Virus record (IMG/VR): IMGVR_UViG_3300050120_000361
Span: 62,001 to 126,000 of that record
Strand: one strand, 5' to 3'
Length of the DNA stretch: 64,000 bases
Origin: a virus
Below are positions 7,864 through 35,734 of this stretch, piece after piece (the stretch's first letter is position 1; each line of letters opens with the position of its first letter). Under the pieces are notes generated by a model. The model was given only the letters and a program-made list of their open reading frames with translations, did no database searches and was not told the DNA's origin. Made by a program: the position numbers and the translations under genes.

Positions 7864-8256
7864 TTAGAATGGCAAATCGTCGTCCTGCGGCGTGCTGTCG
7901 AAGGTCGTGCTCTGTGGCATGTTTCCCGAGCCGTAAGTGCTGTTTCCCTTGCGGACCGCATGGTCGTCGCCCCGTTGGAAACGCCAGGCCACGAAAGTGT
8001 TGAACCAGAACTTCTTCCCCTGAGGGTTGGTCCAAAGCCGGCCCCTCAGGTTGAAGTGCACCGTGACCTCCTCGCCCTCGTTGTAGCTGTCGAGCAGCCC
8101 GGTGTTCCCTCCGTGGAGTTCGAACCTTATGTACTCAGGCCACTGCTGGTTCCCGCTCGGGTAGTACAGCAGCACGAAGGCGAGCTTCTTGAACTTCTCG
8201 CTCACCTGCTCCTCATCGAATATTTCGTGCAGTATTCCTGTTATCTCCTGACTCAT
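7864..8256 (-). CDS. DUF3127 protein, OB-fold single-strand-binding-like, 130 aa
   Basis: Residues about 22-95 match the DUF3127 pattern common in Bacteroidota and their phages: IRFELHGG, LLDSYNEGEEVTVHFNLRGR, and a Trp-x-Asn-Pro-x-Gly turn. This family is thought to have an OB fold. The low-complexity tail ends in QDDDLPF, close to the acidic DDDIPF-type tip by which bacterial SSB recruits partners. An ssDNA-binding or recombination-mediator role is likely. It is distinct from the gp32-like protein at 33479-34759, so the phage appears to carry two. The gene is in a compact run with small genes of unknown function. Confidence 0.8.
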   Translation of the reverse strand: MSQEITGILHEIFDEEQVSEKFKKLAFVLLYYPSGNQQWPEYIRFELHGGNTGLLDSYNEGEEVTVHFNLRGRLWTNPQGKKFWFNTFVAWRFQRGDDHAVRKGNSTYGSGNMPQSTTFDSTPQDDDLPF

Positions 8257-8259
8257 CTT

Positions 8260-8523
8260 TTACTGTAAATTGTTTGGTTTGAGTCCGCCTTGGTACTTGA
8301 CCATGCGGACGCTGTATCTGTCCTGTATCGTAAGACAGTCCTCGGTGTGGAAGGCCTCCTTGCGTATCTCCCGCAGCTGGCCGAGAGAGCCCGACTTCAT
8401 AAGCCTTTTGAGGAATACCGATGAAGGGCCTATCTCAACCATTACGCAAACCTCCCCCTTGTACGAAAAGGGCACGTAGTGCCTGAACTCTCCGAGCCTT
8501 ATCTCCTGTTGTTCGAAAGCCAT
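8260..8523 (-). CDS. Hypothetical protein, 87 aa
   Basis: I chose ATG at 8523 (MAFEQQ) because the longer frame would overlap the upstream gene, which ends at 8528, whereas this start leaves a 4-nt gap. The product is basic and mixed alpha/beta with one Cys pair at a distance. No domain was recognised. It is 3 nt from the DUF3127 gene and probably co-translated with it. Confidence 0.65.
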   Translation of the reverse strand: MAFEQQEIRLGEFRHYVPFSYKGEVCVMVEIGPSSVFLKRLMKSGSLGQLREIRKEAFHTEDCLTIQDRYSVRMVKYQGGLKPNNLQ

Positions 8524-8527
8524 GTTA

Positions 8528-8800
8528 TTAGAATATTGTGACGTCGAGCGCAAACTCCGTATCGCACTCGAGCAAGCTGTCATCCTGCGTGAACTGTTCG
8601 GTTATGAAACCCGCATGCTCTCCAAAGTCCTTTCCCTTGTGGAAGGCCCAGTCAAGGACCTCATTGTAAAGCTCCTCTCCGTCCACGTTTGGCATCTCAC
8701 CTGATACTAGCCTAACGGACAGTACCTTGACGGTTACCGGCTTTTCAACGTTTTTGGGTATTTTCCAAGTTGACAAATCAACCATTCCCGTACCCTCCAT
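8528..8800 (-). CDS. Hypothetical protein, 90 aa
   Basis: Small acidic protein with a beta-strand-like middle (VTVKVLSVRLVSG) and a C-terminal acidic region. An alternative start at residue 6 (position 8785) would shorten its overlap with the preceding gene from 23 to 8 nt. No family was recognised. It belongs to the run of small genes between the MazG-like and DUF3127 genes. Confidence 0.6.
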   Translation of the reverse strand: MEGTGMVDLSTWKIPKNVEKPVTVKVLSVRLVSGEMPNVDGEELYNEVLDWAFHKGKDFGEHAGFITEQFTQDDSLLECDTEFALDVTIF

Positions 8801-31635: not shown

Positions 31636-31881
31636 TTATTCGTTCTTAGTCTCGTAGCAGTCAGAGCACATGTCGTCCTCATCCGACCAGCAATCAACCC
31701 CATACCAACAGCCGCAGGTCTCGCAGTGGAATGTAGTATTGTTTATAAAGTCCCAATCCTCGCCTGCAAAGTCCAATGAATTCATGCCAGGCCAGAGCGT
31801 GTCCAGGCACGAGTCGAGAGTGTCGCATGAGCCATCAAGGGTTTCGCAGAGCGCGTTCGCGTCGAAGCCGGGATGTCTCAT
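31636..31881 (-). CDS. Small acidic protein with zinc-ribbon-like C-terminus, 81 aa
   Basis: ATG 31881 overlaps the helicase stop in a TGATG arrangement, which is why I prefer it to a start 39 nt further upstream. The last 30 residues contain CETCGCW, DCW and CSDC, a plausible zinc ribbon. The first 45 residues carry three more Cys (CETLDGSCDTLDSC). The whole protein is strongly acidic. Function unknown. Confidence 0.6.
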   Translation of the reverse strand: MRHPGFDANALCETLDGSCDTLDSCLDTLWPGMNSLDFAGEDWDFINNTTFHCETCGCWYGVDCWSDEDDMCSDCYETKNE

Positions 31882-33401
31882 CAGGCGGCTGTCTTCAAAT
31901 ACACGTCGTACTCGACGCATGGGTGTTTTTCGGCCTCGTATATCTTGTTCCGTGCCGACGCGTGGTTCTTAAACGAGCATCCTGGTATCAGGTCCTGATA
32001 GTCCCATACATTTGCGAAAAGCTTGGCAAGGTATATCCTGATTGACCTTCCAACGGATTGCTTAATGCGTATCTCCGACCTACCTCCGTCCGGAAAATGG
32101 ACGTGGGCTACGGAAGGTACGGACACGCCGGTGGACATCGTCTCGTATGTAGCCACGAGCACGCAGTCGTCGCGGCCCTTTACAAGGTTCAGTATCTCGT
32201 CCCTTCCTTTCACGCTTCCGTGTATTATCTCCACAATACGTTCTGGACACCTCTCCTGTATAAAGTCCTTAAGCATCTTGCAGTAGTCCACGCTTTCAAC
32301 AAGTACGAGGTGGTTCAGCTCATGACTGTTTATCAGCTTGCACATAAGGTTTGTGCGCTGCTCGTGCGAGTGAAACCATGCCTTTTCTATGTGGTATCTC
32401 TCAATGCCTGTAAAGCCGCTTTCCTTAAGGTTCTTGCTCATATCGTTCTCCTCGCCGGAGTAGTGTATGCGCACCTTGTTTATCTTAACAGGGCATGCGT
32501 TGCCATCGGCTATGAGTTCCCAAGTCTTTTTCACAAGCACTCTGGGGCCGAACATGCTCACAATGTTAAGGTAATCGAGGGTCTTCCATTCGGGAAACGA
32601 ACCGGTCATTCCGAAAAAGTACTCCGTATGGAAGCACTTGGCGTATATCCCGTTGCGTATGGAATTCGACTTGGCTCCGTGAACCTCATCGCATATCACC
32701 GCGAAAAAGTCGTCGAAATACTCAGCATCATAATCCGAAAGCGAGTTGTAGACGCCAACCACTATTTGAGCATCCTCTATCCTTTTGGAGCCTGAGAATA
32801 TTGTCTCTACCTTGAATGGACTGTCGCTGAATTCATCGTATTCCTTGAAGTCGGCCTGAAGCTGCTTTGCGAGGAGTTGCCGTGGAACTATTATCAGAAG
32901 CTTCTTACCCTTGGGCACCACGTGATCAATCATGTACCTGCAGTATAGGTAGGTTATGAGCGTCTTGCCCCCAGAAGTCCCAACCTCAATGCGCGCAGTC
33001 TTGAAGAGTATCGCCCTGTATGCGGACTCCATCTGGTAAAGGTACTCAGCCTTCCAGATGTCATACTTCTCCGGCAGTATGAGCGACTCCATGTATTCGT
33101 TGAAGTGCGACCGAGTCAGCTTGTTATTGTAGAATATGTGGTCGTTCTCTATCTCAAGCTTGTATGGAAGCGCTGGACCCACTTTCTGCCTGATATCCTG
33201 CCAAAATTGGAAAGGCACGAATGTCGAATTTATAAAGTATGACTGGCTTACGTTCTTGTTAAGCGACTTGATAAAGGGCTTGTACTCCGTCCTACTCACC
33301 ACATTCTCAATTAGCTTTAAGTGCGGAAGGTCCTCGGGTTTCAGGTCCCAAATCTGTATGAAATTCTTGTGGTTCTTGCCCTCAACAGCTGTCAGTCTCA
33401 T
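31881..33401 (-). CDS. uvsW: UvsW-like SF2 DNA helicase, 506 aa
   Basis: Motif I is the unusual VGTSGGKTLIT at 140-150 (Lys146), like T4 UvsW. Motif II is CDEVH (237-241), motif III MTGSFP, motif V VATYETMSTGVS and motif VI QSVGRSIR. The N-terminal 110 residues resemble the small UvsW substrate-binding domain. T4 UvsW (503 aa) remodels recombination intermediates and R-loops and ends origin-dependent replication; the same role is likely. The start at 33401 has a strong AAAGGAGG ribosome-binding site, rare in this window, and follows a terminator-like hairpin, suggesting a separately controlled gene. Confidence 0.9.
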   Translation of the reverse strand: MRLTAVEGKNHKNFIQIWDLKPEDLPHLKLIENVVSRTEYKPFIKSLNKNVSQSYFINSTFVPFQFWQDIRQKVGPALPYKLEIENDHIFYNNKLTRSHFNEYMESLILPEKYDIWKAEYLYQMESAYRAILFKTARIEVGTSGGKTLITYLYCRYMIDHVVPKGKKLLIIVPRQLLAKQLQADFKEYDEFSDSPFKVETIFSGSKRIEDAQIVVGVYNSLSDYDAEYFDDFFAVICDEVHGAKSNSIRNGIYAKCFHTEYFFGMTGSFPEWKTLDYLNIVSMFGPRVLVKKTWELIADGNACPVKINKVRIHYSGEENDMSKNLKESGFTGIERYHIEKAWFHSHEQRTNLMCKLINSHELNHLVLVESVDYCKMLKDFIQERCPERIVEIIHGSVKGRDEILNLVKGRDDCVLVATYETMSTGVSVPSVAHVHFPDGGRSEIRIKQSVGRSIRIYLAKLFANVWDYQDLIPGCSFKNHASARNKIYEAEKHPCVEYDVYLKTAA

Positions 33402-33405
33402 ATAT

Positions 33406-33413
33406 CCTCCTTT
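33406..33413 (-). promoter_or_regulatory. Strong Shine-Dalgarno of the UvsW-like gene
   Basis: AAAGGAGG on the minus strand ends 4 nt before the ATG at 33401. Most other starts in this window have only A-rich leaders, so this site stands out. Confidence 0.7.
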
Positions 33414-33419
33414 AACGGG

Positions 33420-33448
33420 AAAGGCCCCGCTTTTGCACGGGGCCCTTT
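33420..33448 (-). terminator. Terminator-like hairpin after the SSB gene
   Basis: A GGCCCCG/CGGGGCC stem extended by A-T pairs, with an 8-nt loop and a short T-run (TTTCCC) on the minus strand. It lies 30 nt beyond the stop of the gp32-like gene and just before the helicase ribosome-binding site. Confidence 0.6.
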
Positions 33449-33478
33449 CGGTTCAATTAATTTCGATTTTGTTGTTCG

Positions 33479-34759
33479 TTAAGAATTAAGGATGTCCTCA
33501 ACATCCGGAGACTTTTGCGTTATCTCAGCGCTTGTAGCCGGTGCCTCAGCCGCTGGAGCGGATTGTACGGGCGCCTCAGCCGCTGGCGGCGCCTGTTGGG
33601 TTTGGGCTGCAGGTGGCGGCGTTGGCGCCTGAACTGGTGATGCTCCTGCCGCGAGCACGGAGTCAACGAGCTCGGTTGGCGCGGAGTTCTTCAGGATGTC
33701 CTGCGCCGAAGCGCCTGAAAGCGTGGTGGCGCTGTCGCTTCCCTCGGTCGAGCCTGTGGCGACCGTGCCGTAGGACTTGATTTCCTGGATGGAGGTGGCG
33801 TTCAGGATAACCGGAATTATCTCGTCAATCTTCAAAGCCAAGTCGATAAGGTACTTGTTGGTGTCCTCAGTGTTCTTAGGGTCGTTCAACGCCTTGTAGG
33901 CGAAGTAGTTGTGGATTGAAAGCTCGGGCTTGGTCATGTTGGCGATGAGGGCGCTGAAGAAGTCGTCAAGCCCATCAGCCAATGAGCCGTCGGCGTTCTT
34001 GTCGGCCTGCGTGAAGGTGTGCTCCCTGCCGTCCTCCAACTTCACGTAAGCGCCGCGAATGTTCTTCGTGAAGGCGGACTTCGTGAAGTCGCGCCCCTTG
34101 CGGCCGTCGTAGTCGGCCTCGTCGCATTGGATGAAAAGCGCGCTCGAGCCGAACGAGTCAAAGATGTCCTCCTTCTCAAACCCCTGCTTCTGCTTGGCCT
34201 CGGACGGGTTCAGCTTCTCATCAATCAGGTTGGCGATTGTCGCGTTTGGTCCGAATGTCGAGAAGGTGAAGAGTCGGATGATGCCTATCTCAGCGGCATC
34301 ATCCGACTCAAGCACCTGTACCACTGAACAGCCCTGATTTGTAACGCTCAAAAAGTCGTCGATTTTCTGTATGGCCAGGGCGTCGCCGTTCTTTTTCAGA
34401 GCGTGGAGCTGGAAGAACGCGTCGAGAACCTTGTCGGTTTTCGCGTTGTTTGATGAAACTGATTGGAATGTCTTGCCGCGGCGGGTAGGGTCTGGAAGGT
34501 TCTTGTATACCTTGCGGTGTATGATGTCATTGTTGCCCGCAAGGGTGGTTGACTCCAGGTTGCGGAGCAATTTGACCGTGTAGGATTTGCCTACCTGGGG
34601 TTCAAAGAAGATTAGGGAGTAGTCCATTCCACCACCAAGAGGAATATCCTCCGCCTTAACGGCCTGTGAAACGTCTGTTTTTGTTGTGAGCATGGCGGCC
34701 TTCAAGGCGTCCATGTTGTTTGCGGCTGGTTGCTGCGTGGTCGAATTCTGATCTGACAT
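33479..34759 (-). CDS. Single-stranded DNA-binding protein (T4 gp32-like), 426 aa
   Basis: The N-terminal arm is Ser/Gln/Asn-rich. The core shows features of gp32-type SSBs: the VGKSYTVKLLRN strand (about 57-68), RKVYKNLPDPTRRGKTF (about 83-99) and aromatic-rich strands, with an internal region about 240-270 containing acidic and basic surface residues. The C-terminus is a long Ala/Pro/Gln-rich linker ending in an acidic tip, DVEDILNS. It would coat ssDNA and recruit replication proteins through the tip. It is longer than gp32 (301) because of the linker. The leader carries six phased repeats, annotated separately. I do not see the Cys/His zinc finger of gp32. Confidence 0.75.
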   Translation of the reverse strand: MSDQNSTTQQPAANNMDALKAAMLTTKTDVSQAVKAEDIPLGGGMDYSLIFFEPQVGKSYTVKLLRNLESTTLAGNNDIIHRKVYKNLPDPTRRGKTFQSVSSNNAKTDKVLDAFFQLHALKKNGDALAIQKIDDFLSVTNQGCSVVQVLESDDAAEIGIIRLFTFSTFGPNATIANLIDEKLNPSEAKQKQGFEKEDIFDSFGSSALFIQCDEADYDGRKGRDFTKSAFTKNIRGAYVKLEDGREHTFTQADKNADGSLADGLDDFFSALIANMTKPELSIHNYFAYKALNDPKNTEDTNKYLIDLALKIDEIIPVILNATSIQEIKSYGTVATGSTEGSDSATTLSGASAQDILKNSAPTELVDSVLAAGASPVQAPTPPPAAQTQQAPPAAEAPVQSAPAAEAPATSAEITQKSPDVEDILNS

Positions 34760-34760
34760 G

Positions 34761-34820
34761 ATTGAAAAATTAATGAATTTGTTTGAAATTTGATTGAAGA
34801 TTATTGAAACTTTTATTGAA
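34761..34820 (-). promoter_or_regulatory. Six phased TTCAAT-like repeats in the SSB gene leader
   Basis: On the minus strand TTCAAT or a one-base variant occurs six times, from 34820 down to 34761, with starts spaced 10-12 nt apart and the last copy ending 1 nt before the ATG. The stretch has almost no G and should be unstructured in RNA. T4 gene 32 mRNA has an AU-rich repeat leader to which gp32 binds cooperatively to repress itself. This may be an analogous operator, or a helically phased DNA-binding site. Confidence 0.6.
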
Positions 34821-34849: not shown

Positions 34850-35734
34850 CTATAGGGTGGTCGGCATTTGCTTGATAGGGTCAAATCCCAATTGCTGCAC
34901 AATGTAGTCGTATGTCCTTATGCGGGCGGCCACCAGGTCCTTTGTTTCGGTAGGCAGGTTTGGCATCCAGAAGCATTCCACATGCAGCGCGTTTGAGGAG
35001 TCCCTGTAAACCATAACCTTCCAGTACACGTCAGGAACCGTTACGGTGTTCCTGCCGTCAGTGTAGGTTGTCGGCTTAACCTTTGCGTCTTTGGCGTACT
35101 TGGCAGGGTCCACCCAGGTACCGGCCCATATGTCTATGCGTGCCGTAACCGCTATTATTTCTCCAGACCTTGACCAACCAGTAAGCATCCTGCACCTGTC
35201 CTCCGTGGCTATCTCGGTTCCGACGTTCTGCCCCTGGTACTGCATAGCGGCGTTGTAGTCGTAAACGTCAGAATAGACCATGCCCCATTGGCACCACGCT
35301 AGCAGTACCCATGCGGCGCCGCAGTGCCCGTAAGCTATTTCGTAGGGCGAGTCGGGCCTGTTTATGATCCTGTTCGCAGCCGAGTAGACCGCAGTCACGT
35401 CCCTCGCGGCTGTCACGTGGTGCCACTCCGACTCAGGGCCCTTGCGGTTTCCTGTGCCGAGAGCCTGCTGCATCAGCCTGTGCTGCTTCGTATACACGTA
35501 GTGCTCCAGCAAGGGCATGTGCCTCACGGTGTCCGCAATAGATGAGTAGTACGGGTTCACCCACAGGCGGCAGGCCGGGCACAGGTCAGATTTCCTGGTA
35601 GGGTATTTGGCGAACTCGGCCTGTATGTCCTTGGCCGTAAGCACTGGGAACTTGGACTGGCCGTCAGCTTCGTACATCAGCAGCGAAAGCGCGAGCGCCG
35701 CCATAAAGCATAGAATGACATTGGGGTTTTTCAT
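34850..35734 (-). CDS. Secreted DNA/RNA non-specific endonuclease-like protein, 294 aa
   Basis: The N-terminus is a signal peptide (hydrophobic core LCFMAALALSLLM, residues 8-20, likely cut near ADG-QS). The mature part resembles the NUC1/beta-beta-alpha-metal nuclease family. Catalytic His137 is in AYGHCGAAW, replacing the common DRGH. The metal-binding Asn region YDYNAAMQYQGQN (158-170), Glu174 and an Arg-rich helix follow. Then come GEIIAVTARI and VPDVYWKVMVYR, matching the late strands. A CPAC pair at 52-55 and further Cys suggest disulfides in the periplasm. It may degrade DNA outside the cytoplasm. Activity is inferred. Confidence 0.68.
   Translation of the reverse strand: MKNPNVILCFMAALALSLLMYEADGQSKFPVLTAKDIQAEFAKYPTRKSDLCPACRLWVNPYYSSIADTVRHMPLLEHYVYTKQHRLMQQALGTGNRKGPESEWHHVTAARDVTAVYSAANRIINRPDSPYEIAYGHCGAAWVLLAWCQWGMVYSDVYDYNAAMQYQGQNVGTEIATEDRCRMLTGWSRSGEIIAVTARIDIWAGTWVDPAKYAKDAKVKPTTYTDGRNTVTVPDVYWKVMVYRDSSNALHVECFWMPNLPTETKDLVAARIRTYDYIVQQLGFDPIKQMPTTL

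What the first reader, a model, noticed from the sequence alone, without database searches (positions are those of the whole stretch)
34761..34820. Helically phased TTCAAT array abutting the start codon of the SSB gene
Six copies of TTCAAT or a one-base variant, in the mRNA sense, have starts spaced 11, 10, 11, 10 and 12 nt apart, the last ending 1 nt before ATG. The leader is G-poor and should be unstructured. T4 gp32 represses its own mRNA by cooperative binding to an AU-rich repeat leader at the start codon. The same logic may have been reinvented here with a different repeat. A DNA-level alternative is a phased protein-binding array.
Basis: partly seen in the sequence, partly recalled or inferred. 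Interest (0 to 1): 0.75.

Follow-up and report, generated by a model that had tools for sequence, protein, structure and literature searches.

The report
Repeat-array leader of phage SSB gene
A large phage, probably of Bacteroidota, carries six regularly spaced TTCAAT-like repeats filling the short untranslated mRNA leader of its single-strand DNA-binding protein gene; most of its relatives have different repeats at exactly that spot, which suggests (unproven) that the protein limits its own production by coating its own message, as in phage T4.

Summary
The array is real. On the minus strand it runs from 34820 to 34761: four TTCAAT, one TTCAAA, one TTCATT. Starts are 12, 10, 11, 10 and 11 nt apart in mRNA order, and one base separates the last copy from the ATG at 34759. 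Composition-matched shuffles reach six copies in 1 to 7 of 10,000. It is the only non-coding array of five or more in the ~204 kb examined. The gene encodes a remote T4 gp32 homologue followed by a UvsW helicase, as in relatives. The array fills the predicted 5'UTR: it begins right after a promoter motif (CCCTATA..GGATA..ATAAG; 9 sites, 0.2 expected).

TTCAAT itself is not conserved, but the position is. Most Bacteroidota-type relatives have other G-poor AU repeats (AAACAATTT, AAAAAGTAAATTT, AACATTTTTA, TTTTTAAC) against the SSB start codon, usually the most repetitive leader in their genome. AU-richness alone is not special: the tail-sheath leader matches it. Spacings of about 8 to 14 nt among relatives argue against a strict DNA helical rule. 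T4's pseudoknot and UUAAA units are absent here.

Best reading: a diverged gp32-type autogenous translational operator, not a reinvention from nothing. No binding or repression has been shown.

The parts
34761..34820 (-). Six-copy TTCAAT array forming nearly the whole predicted 5'UTR of the SSB gene (copies 34820-34815, 34808-34803, 34798-34793, 34787-34782, 34777-34772, 34766-34761)
   Evidence: 0 of 194 other leaders in the genome reach its repeat score
34821..34834 (-). Downstream part of predicted promoter, GGATAACATATAAG, directly abutting the array
   Evidence: Shared with other intergenic sites in the genome; full motif 9 sites against 0.2 expected; a GGATATA element also precedes the SSB gene in G002, G003 and G004
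34850..34857 (-). Upstream part of predicted promoter, CCCTATAG, overlapping the stop codon of the upstream gene
33479..34759 (-). gp32-type single-strand DNA-binding protein, 426 aa
   Evidence: 46% identical to four IMG/VR phage proteins; these reach PAU gp173 'ssDNA binding' and PTm1 SSB; profile match to T4-type gp32
31881..33401 (-). UvsW-type DNA helicase, next gene downstream of SSB, synteny kept in relatives
   Evidence: PAU gp174 'UvsW-like', PTm1, pT24, MA9V-1/2, L001
34850..35734 (-). Upstream gene, DNA/RNA non-specific endonuclease family (probably unrelated to the array)
   Evidence: Pfam PF01223, E 2.8e-9

Best explanation
The array is the operator of an autogenous translational control, working like that of T4 gene 32 but diverged in sequence. 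A promoter directly upstream makes a short mRNA whose ~60-nt leader is unstructured and built of six units of about 11 nt, each with a UUCAAU core. While free single-stranded DNA is abundant, SSB is titrated and the bare AU-rich leader is translated well in a host that does not use Shine-Dalgarno pairing. When SSB is in excess, monomers bind side by side along the leader, roughly one unit each, cover the start codon and shut down their own synthesis. Shown: array, promoter motif, lack of structure, gp32 homology, and recurrence of leader arrays at this gene in relatives. Inferred: binding by SSB, one monomer per unit, repression, and a Bacteroidota host.
For: Array well beyond chance and the only non-coding one in the ~204 kb examined. 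TTCA core invariant while most spacer columns vary, so it is not a fresh slippage product. SSB is gp32-type. Self-repeat score of the SSB leader exceeds all other leaders examined in G000 (0/194), G002 (0/49), G003 (0/44), G004 (0/44), PTm1 (0/37), pT24 (0/22) and MA9V-2 (0/24); Fisher p 6e-6, or 1e-5 without G000. Against 178 AT-rich non-SSB leaders, Mann-Whitney p 2.6e-5. In sister phages MA9V-1/2 (SSB 95% identical) the proximal leader is almost identical, bar one substitution and a 6-nt indel, while the upstream intergenic part has diverged. UUAAA units, the T4 operator element (PMC535899), occur 3-4 times in the leaders of G002, G003, G004, PAU and PTm1. T4 and RB69 operators also differ in sequence yet either gp32 represses either (PMC535899).
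Against: No binding or repression data. TTCAAT is not conserved in any relative found; nearest relatives are only 45-47% identical in SSB, so no close-kin test was possible. PAU and G001 show no significant array, and MA9V-1 only a weak one. G002-G004 and MA9V-1/2 are related, so the combined p-values overstate independence. Against shuffles the generic score for G000 is only p=0.06. No pseudoknot or other nucleation structure lies in the predicted transcript. The protein has only two cysteines, so it cannot form the T4 zinc site.
Confidence: 0.5

Rival explanations
1. The leader is only a strong Shine-Dalgarno-less translation start: AU-rich, G-poor and unstructured to maximise ribosome loading (possibly through S1) on a highly expressed gene. 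The repeats are a by-product of the skewed composition and have no regulator.
For: Host-type context: few SD-like sequences (11 of 161 leaders) and A-rich positions upstream of ATG, as described for Flavobacterium (PMC6847099). The tail-sheath leader of the same genome is equally AT-rich; other leaders behind the same promoter motif are G-poor too.
Against: Does not predict the array: AT-matched leaders of other genes are less repetitive and the sheath leader has no comparable array. The SSB leader is T-rich next to the ATG (13 T in the last 30 nt against a mean of 6.1), unlike the A-rich leaders of the rest of the genome.
Confidence: 0.28
2. A DNA-level array: a repressor or architectural protein binds six helically phased sites just downstream of the promoter and controls transcription.
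For: Mean spacing 10.8 bp is near one helical turn; the array abuts the promoter motif.
Against: Spacings of 12-13 in G003, PTm1 and pT24 and 8/14 in MA9V-2 do not keep one helical phase. The core has no dyad symmetry. No other copies of the array, even behind the other sites of the same promoter. Array stops at the start codon in every relative that has one.
Confidence: 0.1
3. Neutral tandem-repeat expansion in an unconstrained AT-rich leader.
For: Units differ among lineages; a 6-nt indel separates the MA9V-1 and MA9V-2 leaders.
Against: Units have diverged spacers with an invariant TTCA core; arrays are recurrently at SSB and rarely in other AT-rich leaders; the leader is more conserved than its upstream flank in MA9V-1/2.
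Confidence: 0.08
4. The array is a translational operator for another phage RNA-binding protein (a RegA-like general repressor) rather than for SSB.
For: RegA-type proteins bind unstructured, variable mRNA sites to repress translation in T4 (PMC3014915).
Against: A general regulator should leave similar sites at several genes; the array is unique to SSB in the sequence examined. No RegA homologue was looked for.
Confidence: 0.04

Closest known systems
T4/RB69 gene 32 translational operator (autogenous repression by gp32)
   Same: gp32-type SSB gene; unstructured AU-rich repeats running up to the start codon; divergent operators among relatives are already known for T4 and RB69 (PMC535899)
   Different: No upstream pseudoknot in the predicted transcript; unit is UUCAAU every ~11 nt instead of packed UUAAA/UAAA; no Shine-Dalgarno; no demonstration of repression
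RB49-type gene 32 leader (UUAA/UUAAA units kept, no pseudoknot reported; cited in PMC535899)
   Same: AU repeats without pseudoknot next to a gp32 gene
   Different: No long-period array; the sampled Krischvirus leader (MIZ2) has no significant 8-15 nt repeat; whether RB49 gp32 autoregulates was left open in that paper
Kozak-like, SD-less leaders of Bacteroidota (Flavobacterium johnsoniae, PMC6847099)
   Same: G-poor, unstructured leader without SD
   Different: Those motifs are A at fixed positions (-3, -6, -12/-13), not a tandem array, and act on basal initiation rather than by a repressor

Membership tests
gp32-type SSB protein | Homology to the gp32 DNA-binding core | tested here: met
   hhalign A6 vs A5: 98.9%, E 2.3e-17; PDB 2a1k/2atq E 7e-5, 1gpc 1.8e-3. 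Depends on including PAU/PTm1/pT24/MA9V; the inner group alone gives no significant match
gp32-type SSB protein | Zinc-binding His/Cys cluster | tested here: not met
   Only two Cys (C144, C212) in the 426-aa window protein (sequence read directly). T4 ligand pattern from general knowledge
gp32-type SSB protein | OB fold | tested here: inconclusive
   AlphaFold model of poor confidence, pLDDT 39; not used for a fold search
T4-type gene 32 translational operator | Unstructured AU-rich leader directly before the gp32 start codon | tested here: met
   AT 0.82, one G in 60 nt, MFE 0 kcal/mol
T4-type gene 32 translational operator | Repeats of UUAAA/UAAA | tested here: not met
   TTAAA count 0 in the window leader; repeats are UUCAAU. 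Present 3-4 times in G002, G003, G004, PAU and PTm1
T4-type gene 32 translational operator | 5' RNA pseudoknot as nucleation site | tested here: not met
   A hairpin exists upstream but is no more stable than in shuffles (z 0.02) and overlaps the predicted promoter, so it is probably not in the mRNA
T4-type gene 32 translational operator | Repression of translation by the cognate SSB | not testable with these tools
   Needs gel-shift and reporter assays
Helically phased DNA-binding array | Spacing locked to the ~10.5 bp helical turn and kept in relatives | tested here: not met
   Strongest lag 11-12 in G000, G002, G003 and G004, 13 in PTm1, 12-13 in pT24, 8/14 in MA9V-2

The most novel reading that the evidence does not exclude
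SSBs of large Bacteroidota phages read their own message by a ruler: each monomer recognises one ~10-13-nt unit, and unit sequence and spacing co-evolve with each SSB lineage, giving a pseudoknot-free, SD-independent autoregulation whose repeat unit has turned over between lineages (TTCAAT, AAACAATTT, AAAAAGTAAATTT, AACATTTTTA, TTTTTAAC).
Probability: 0.25. Interest if true: 0.7.

Novelty: new variant of a known kind. Interest (0 to 1): 0.5.

Why it matters
How a sequence-independent DNA-binding protein picks out its own mRNA is an old open question from T4 gene 32. Here several phage lineages offer natural arrays with different units at one homologous position, without the pseudoknot and in hosts that do not use Shine-Dalgarno pairing. 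If the arrays are operators, swapping leaders and SSBs between, for example, PTm1, pT24, MA9V-2 and this phage would show directly whether unit sequence, unit spacing or mere lack of structure gives specificity.

Tried and rejected
Direct annotation of the SSB by Pfam, PHROGs, PDB phmmer and tblastn in the phage collection gave nothing; identity came through intermediates. AlphaFold on a five-sequence alignment failed (pLDDT 39). The exact TTCAAT array searched in IMG/VR (scan truncated) is found mostly inside ORFs and not at SSB genes, so the hexamer alone carries no meaning. An upstream hairpin first considered as a T4-like nucleation structure turned out to coincide with the promoter motif. 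Rfam gave no credible hit. No SSB relative in prokaryote genome contigs. Further scans with the PTm1, MA9V-2 and pT24 SSBs found no new relatives. More distant T4-type leaders (Va1, CC_R7, Yut3, cyanophages) show no significant long-period array; avDM12 shows a weak one (p 0.01).

Full report
OBSERVATION. The minus strand upstream of the 426-aa gene at 33479-34759 reads GGATAACATATAAG TTCAATAAAAGT TTCAATAATC TTCAATCAAAT TTCAAACAAA TTCATTAATTT TTCAATC ATG. Six cores (TTCAAT x4, TTCAAA, TTCATT) start 12, 10, 11, 10 and 11 nt apart in mRNA order, and the last is separated by one C from the ATG. Allowing any hexamer, one mismatch and spacing 10-12, shuffles of the leader itself reach six copies in 1/10,000 (mononucleotide) or 7/10,000 (dinucleotide). 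The effect is specific to spacings around 10-12: five copies at 9-11, three or fewer elsewhere. In ~204 kb of the 208.5-kb record the other arrays of this strength lie in L146 and L147 and look like repetitive coding sequence. Core columns TTCA are invariant and most spacer columns are not.

THE GENE. Family libraries and tblastn did not name the protein. It is 45-47% identical to proteins of four distinct IMG/VR phages. One of these matches gp173 'ssDNA binding' of phage PAU, and PAU gp173 matches annotated SSBs of Tenacibaculum phage PTm1, Vibrio and Campylobacter phages. A profile of ten such proteins matches T4-type gp32 at 98.9% (E 2.3e-17) and solved gp32 structures. A UvsW-type helicase follows in the window, L001, PAU, PTm1, pT24 and MA9V-1/2. 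Cultured relatives come from Tenacibaculum, Chryseobacterium and, for PAU, a host reclassified as Sphingobacterium (PMC3738902), so a Bacteroidota host is likely (inference). Few leaders of the genome carry SD-like sequences (11 of 161) and they are A-rich.

PROMOTER AND TRANSCRIPT. A motif CCCTATA-N-GGATA-N-ATAAG occurs nine times in the sequence examined against 0.2 expected, mostly before genes near one end of the record. One copy lies at 34857-34821, and the array begins with the next base. The array therefore occupies essentially the whole predicted 5'UTR (inference: no transcription start was mapped). The RNA is unstructured, MFE 0 kcal/mol. A hairpin further upstream overlaps the promoter and is not unusually stable.

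COMPARISON WITH RELATIVES. For each phage I took the 60 nt before the SSB ATG and all other leaders of the sequence held. SSB leaders are extreme in AT in most genomes: G000 among the top three of 195, G001 first of 65, G004 first of 45, PTm1 and MA9V-1/2 first; less so in G002, G003 and PAU. AT-richness is not specific, however: in this genome the tail-sheath leader equals it, and other leaders behind the same promoter are G-poor. Repetitiveness is the specific feature. A banded self-alignment score (lags 8-15) of the SSB leader is reached by no other leader in G000 (194), G002 (49), G003 (44), G004 (44), PTm1 (37), pT24 (22) and MA9V-2 (24); it is unremarkable in G001 and PAU and weak in MA9V-1. 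Fisher's combined shuffle p is 6e-6, and 1e-5 without the window. Against 178 non-SSB leaders with AT of at least 0.8, Mann-Whitney p is 2.6e-5. G002-G004 share AAACAATTT units and MA9V-1/2 are sisters, so the number of independent lineages with an array is about five and these p-values are optimistic.

UNITS AND SPACING. Units: TTCAAT (window), AAACAATTT (G002-G004), AAAAAGTAAATTT (PTm1), AACATTTTTA (pT24), TTTTTAAC (MA9V). Strongest lags are 11-12 in G000 and G002-G004, 13 in PTm1, 12-13 in pT24, 8/14 in MA9V-2; this does not fit a strict B-DNA turn. UUAAA, the element of the T4 operator (PMC535899), occurs 3-4 times in G002, G003, G004, PAU and PTm1, and not at all in the window. Between MA9V-1 and MA9V-2 (SSB 95% identical) the leader next to the ATG is nearly unchanged apart from one substitution and a 6-nt indel, while the more distal intergenic part differs at many positions, which suggests constraint.

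MECHANISM. In T4, gp32 in excess over ssDNA nucleates at a pseudoknot and binds cooperatively through UUAAA repeats over the ribosome-binding site; T4 and RB69 operators have diverged and are cross-repressed (PMC535899, PMC3014915). The window has the gp32-type gene and an unstructured repeat leader ending at the AUG, but neither pseudoknot nor UUAAA. The most likely account is a diverged version of that control in an SD-less host, with roughly one monomer per unit. SSB binding, register and repression are inferences. The main rival is a plain strong SD-less leader; it explains AU-richness but not the array, nor the T-richness next to the ATG.

VERDICT. Observation confirmed; interpretation partly supported; a new variant of a known kind if binding is shown. 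The word 'reinvented' should be dropped, because the protein is a gp32 homologue, and 'helical phasing' is not a property of the family.

Noticed in passing
Window 34857-34821 (-); L141 at 12606, 8326, 8234, 7007, 6303, 5705 (-); L143 at 8390, 858 (-): A two-part promoter-like motif, CCCTATA/CTTATAA then N10-22 then GGATA-N-ATAAG, in intergenic regions of this phage, with short G-poor leaders behind it. A GGATATA element also precedes the SSB and other genes in related contigs.
   Followed up: partly
Window ~33402-33450 (-), before the UvsW gene: The helicase start is preceded by a GC-rich hairpin (gggccccgtgcaaaagcggggcc, terminator-like) and an exact AAAGGAGG Shine-Dalgarno sequence, unusual in a genome whose leaders mostly lack SD.
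   Followed up: no
L014 9062-9107 and L086 3279-3324: Five head-to-tail copies of TTCAATAAAG end 18 nt before the ATG of an unidentified 294-aa gene (MKTILFDRISNKITG...) in two AT-rich viral contigs: another start-codon array of 10-nt period.
   Followed up: no
L141 6546-6926 (-): Most AT-rich leader of the genome (0.85), behind the same promoter motif, before an unidentified 126-aa gene; contains AAACAAAC twice.
   Followed up: no
L146 ~9835 and L147 ~8185-8600: Repetitive, apparently coding stretches (30-nt repeats; Lys/Gln-rich repeats) in the same phage genome.
   Followed up: no
Window 34850-35734 (-): Gene directly upstream of SSB is a DNA/RNA non-specific endonuclease family member (PF01223) with a hydrophobic, signal-peptide-like N-terminus, odd in a replication-gene neighbourhood.
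   Followed up: no
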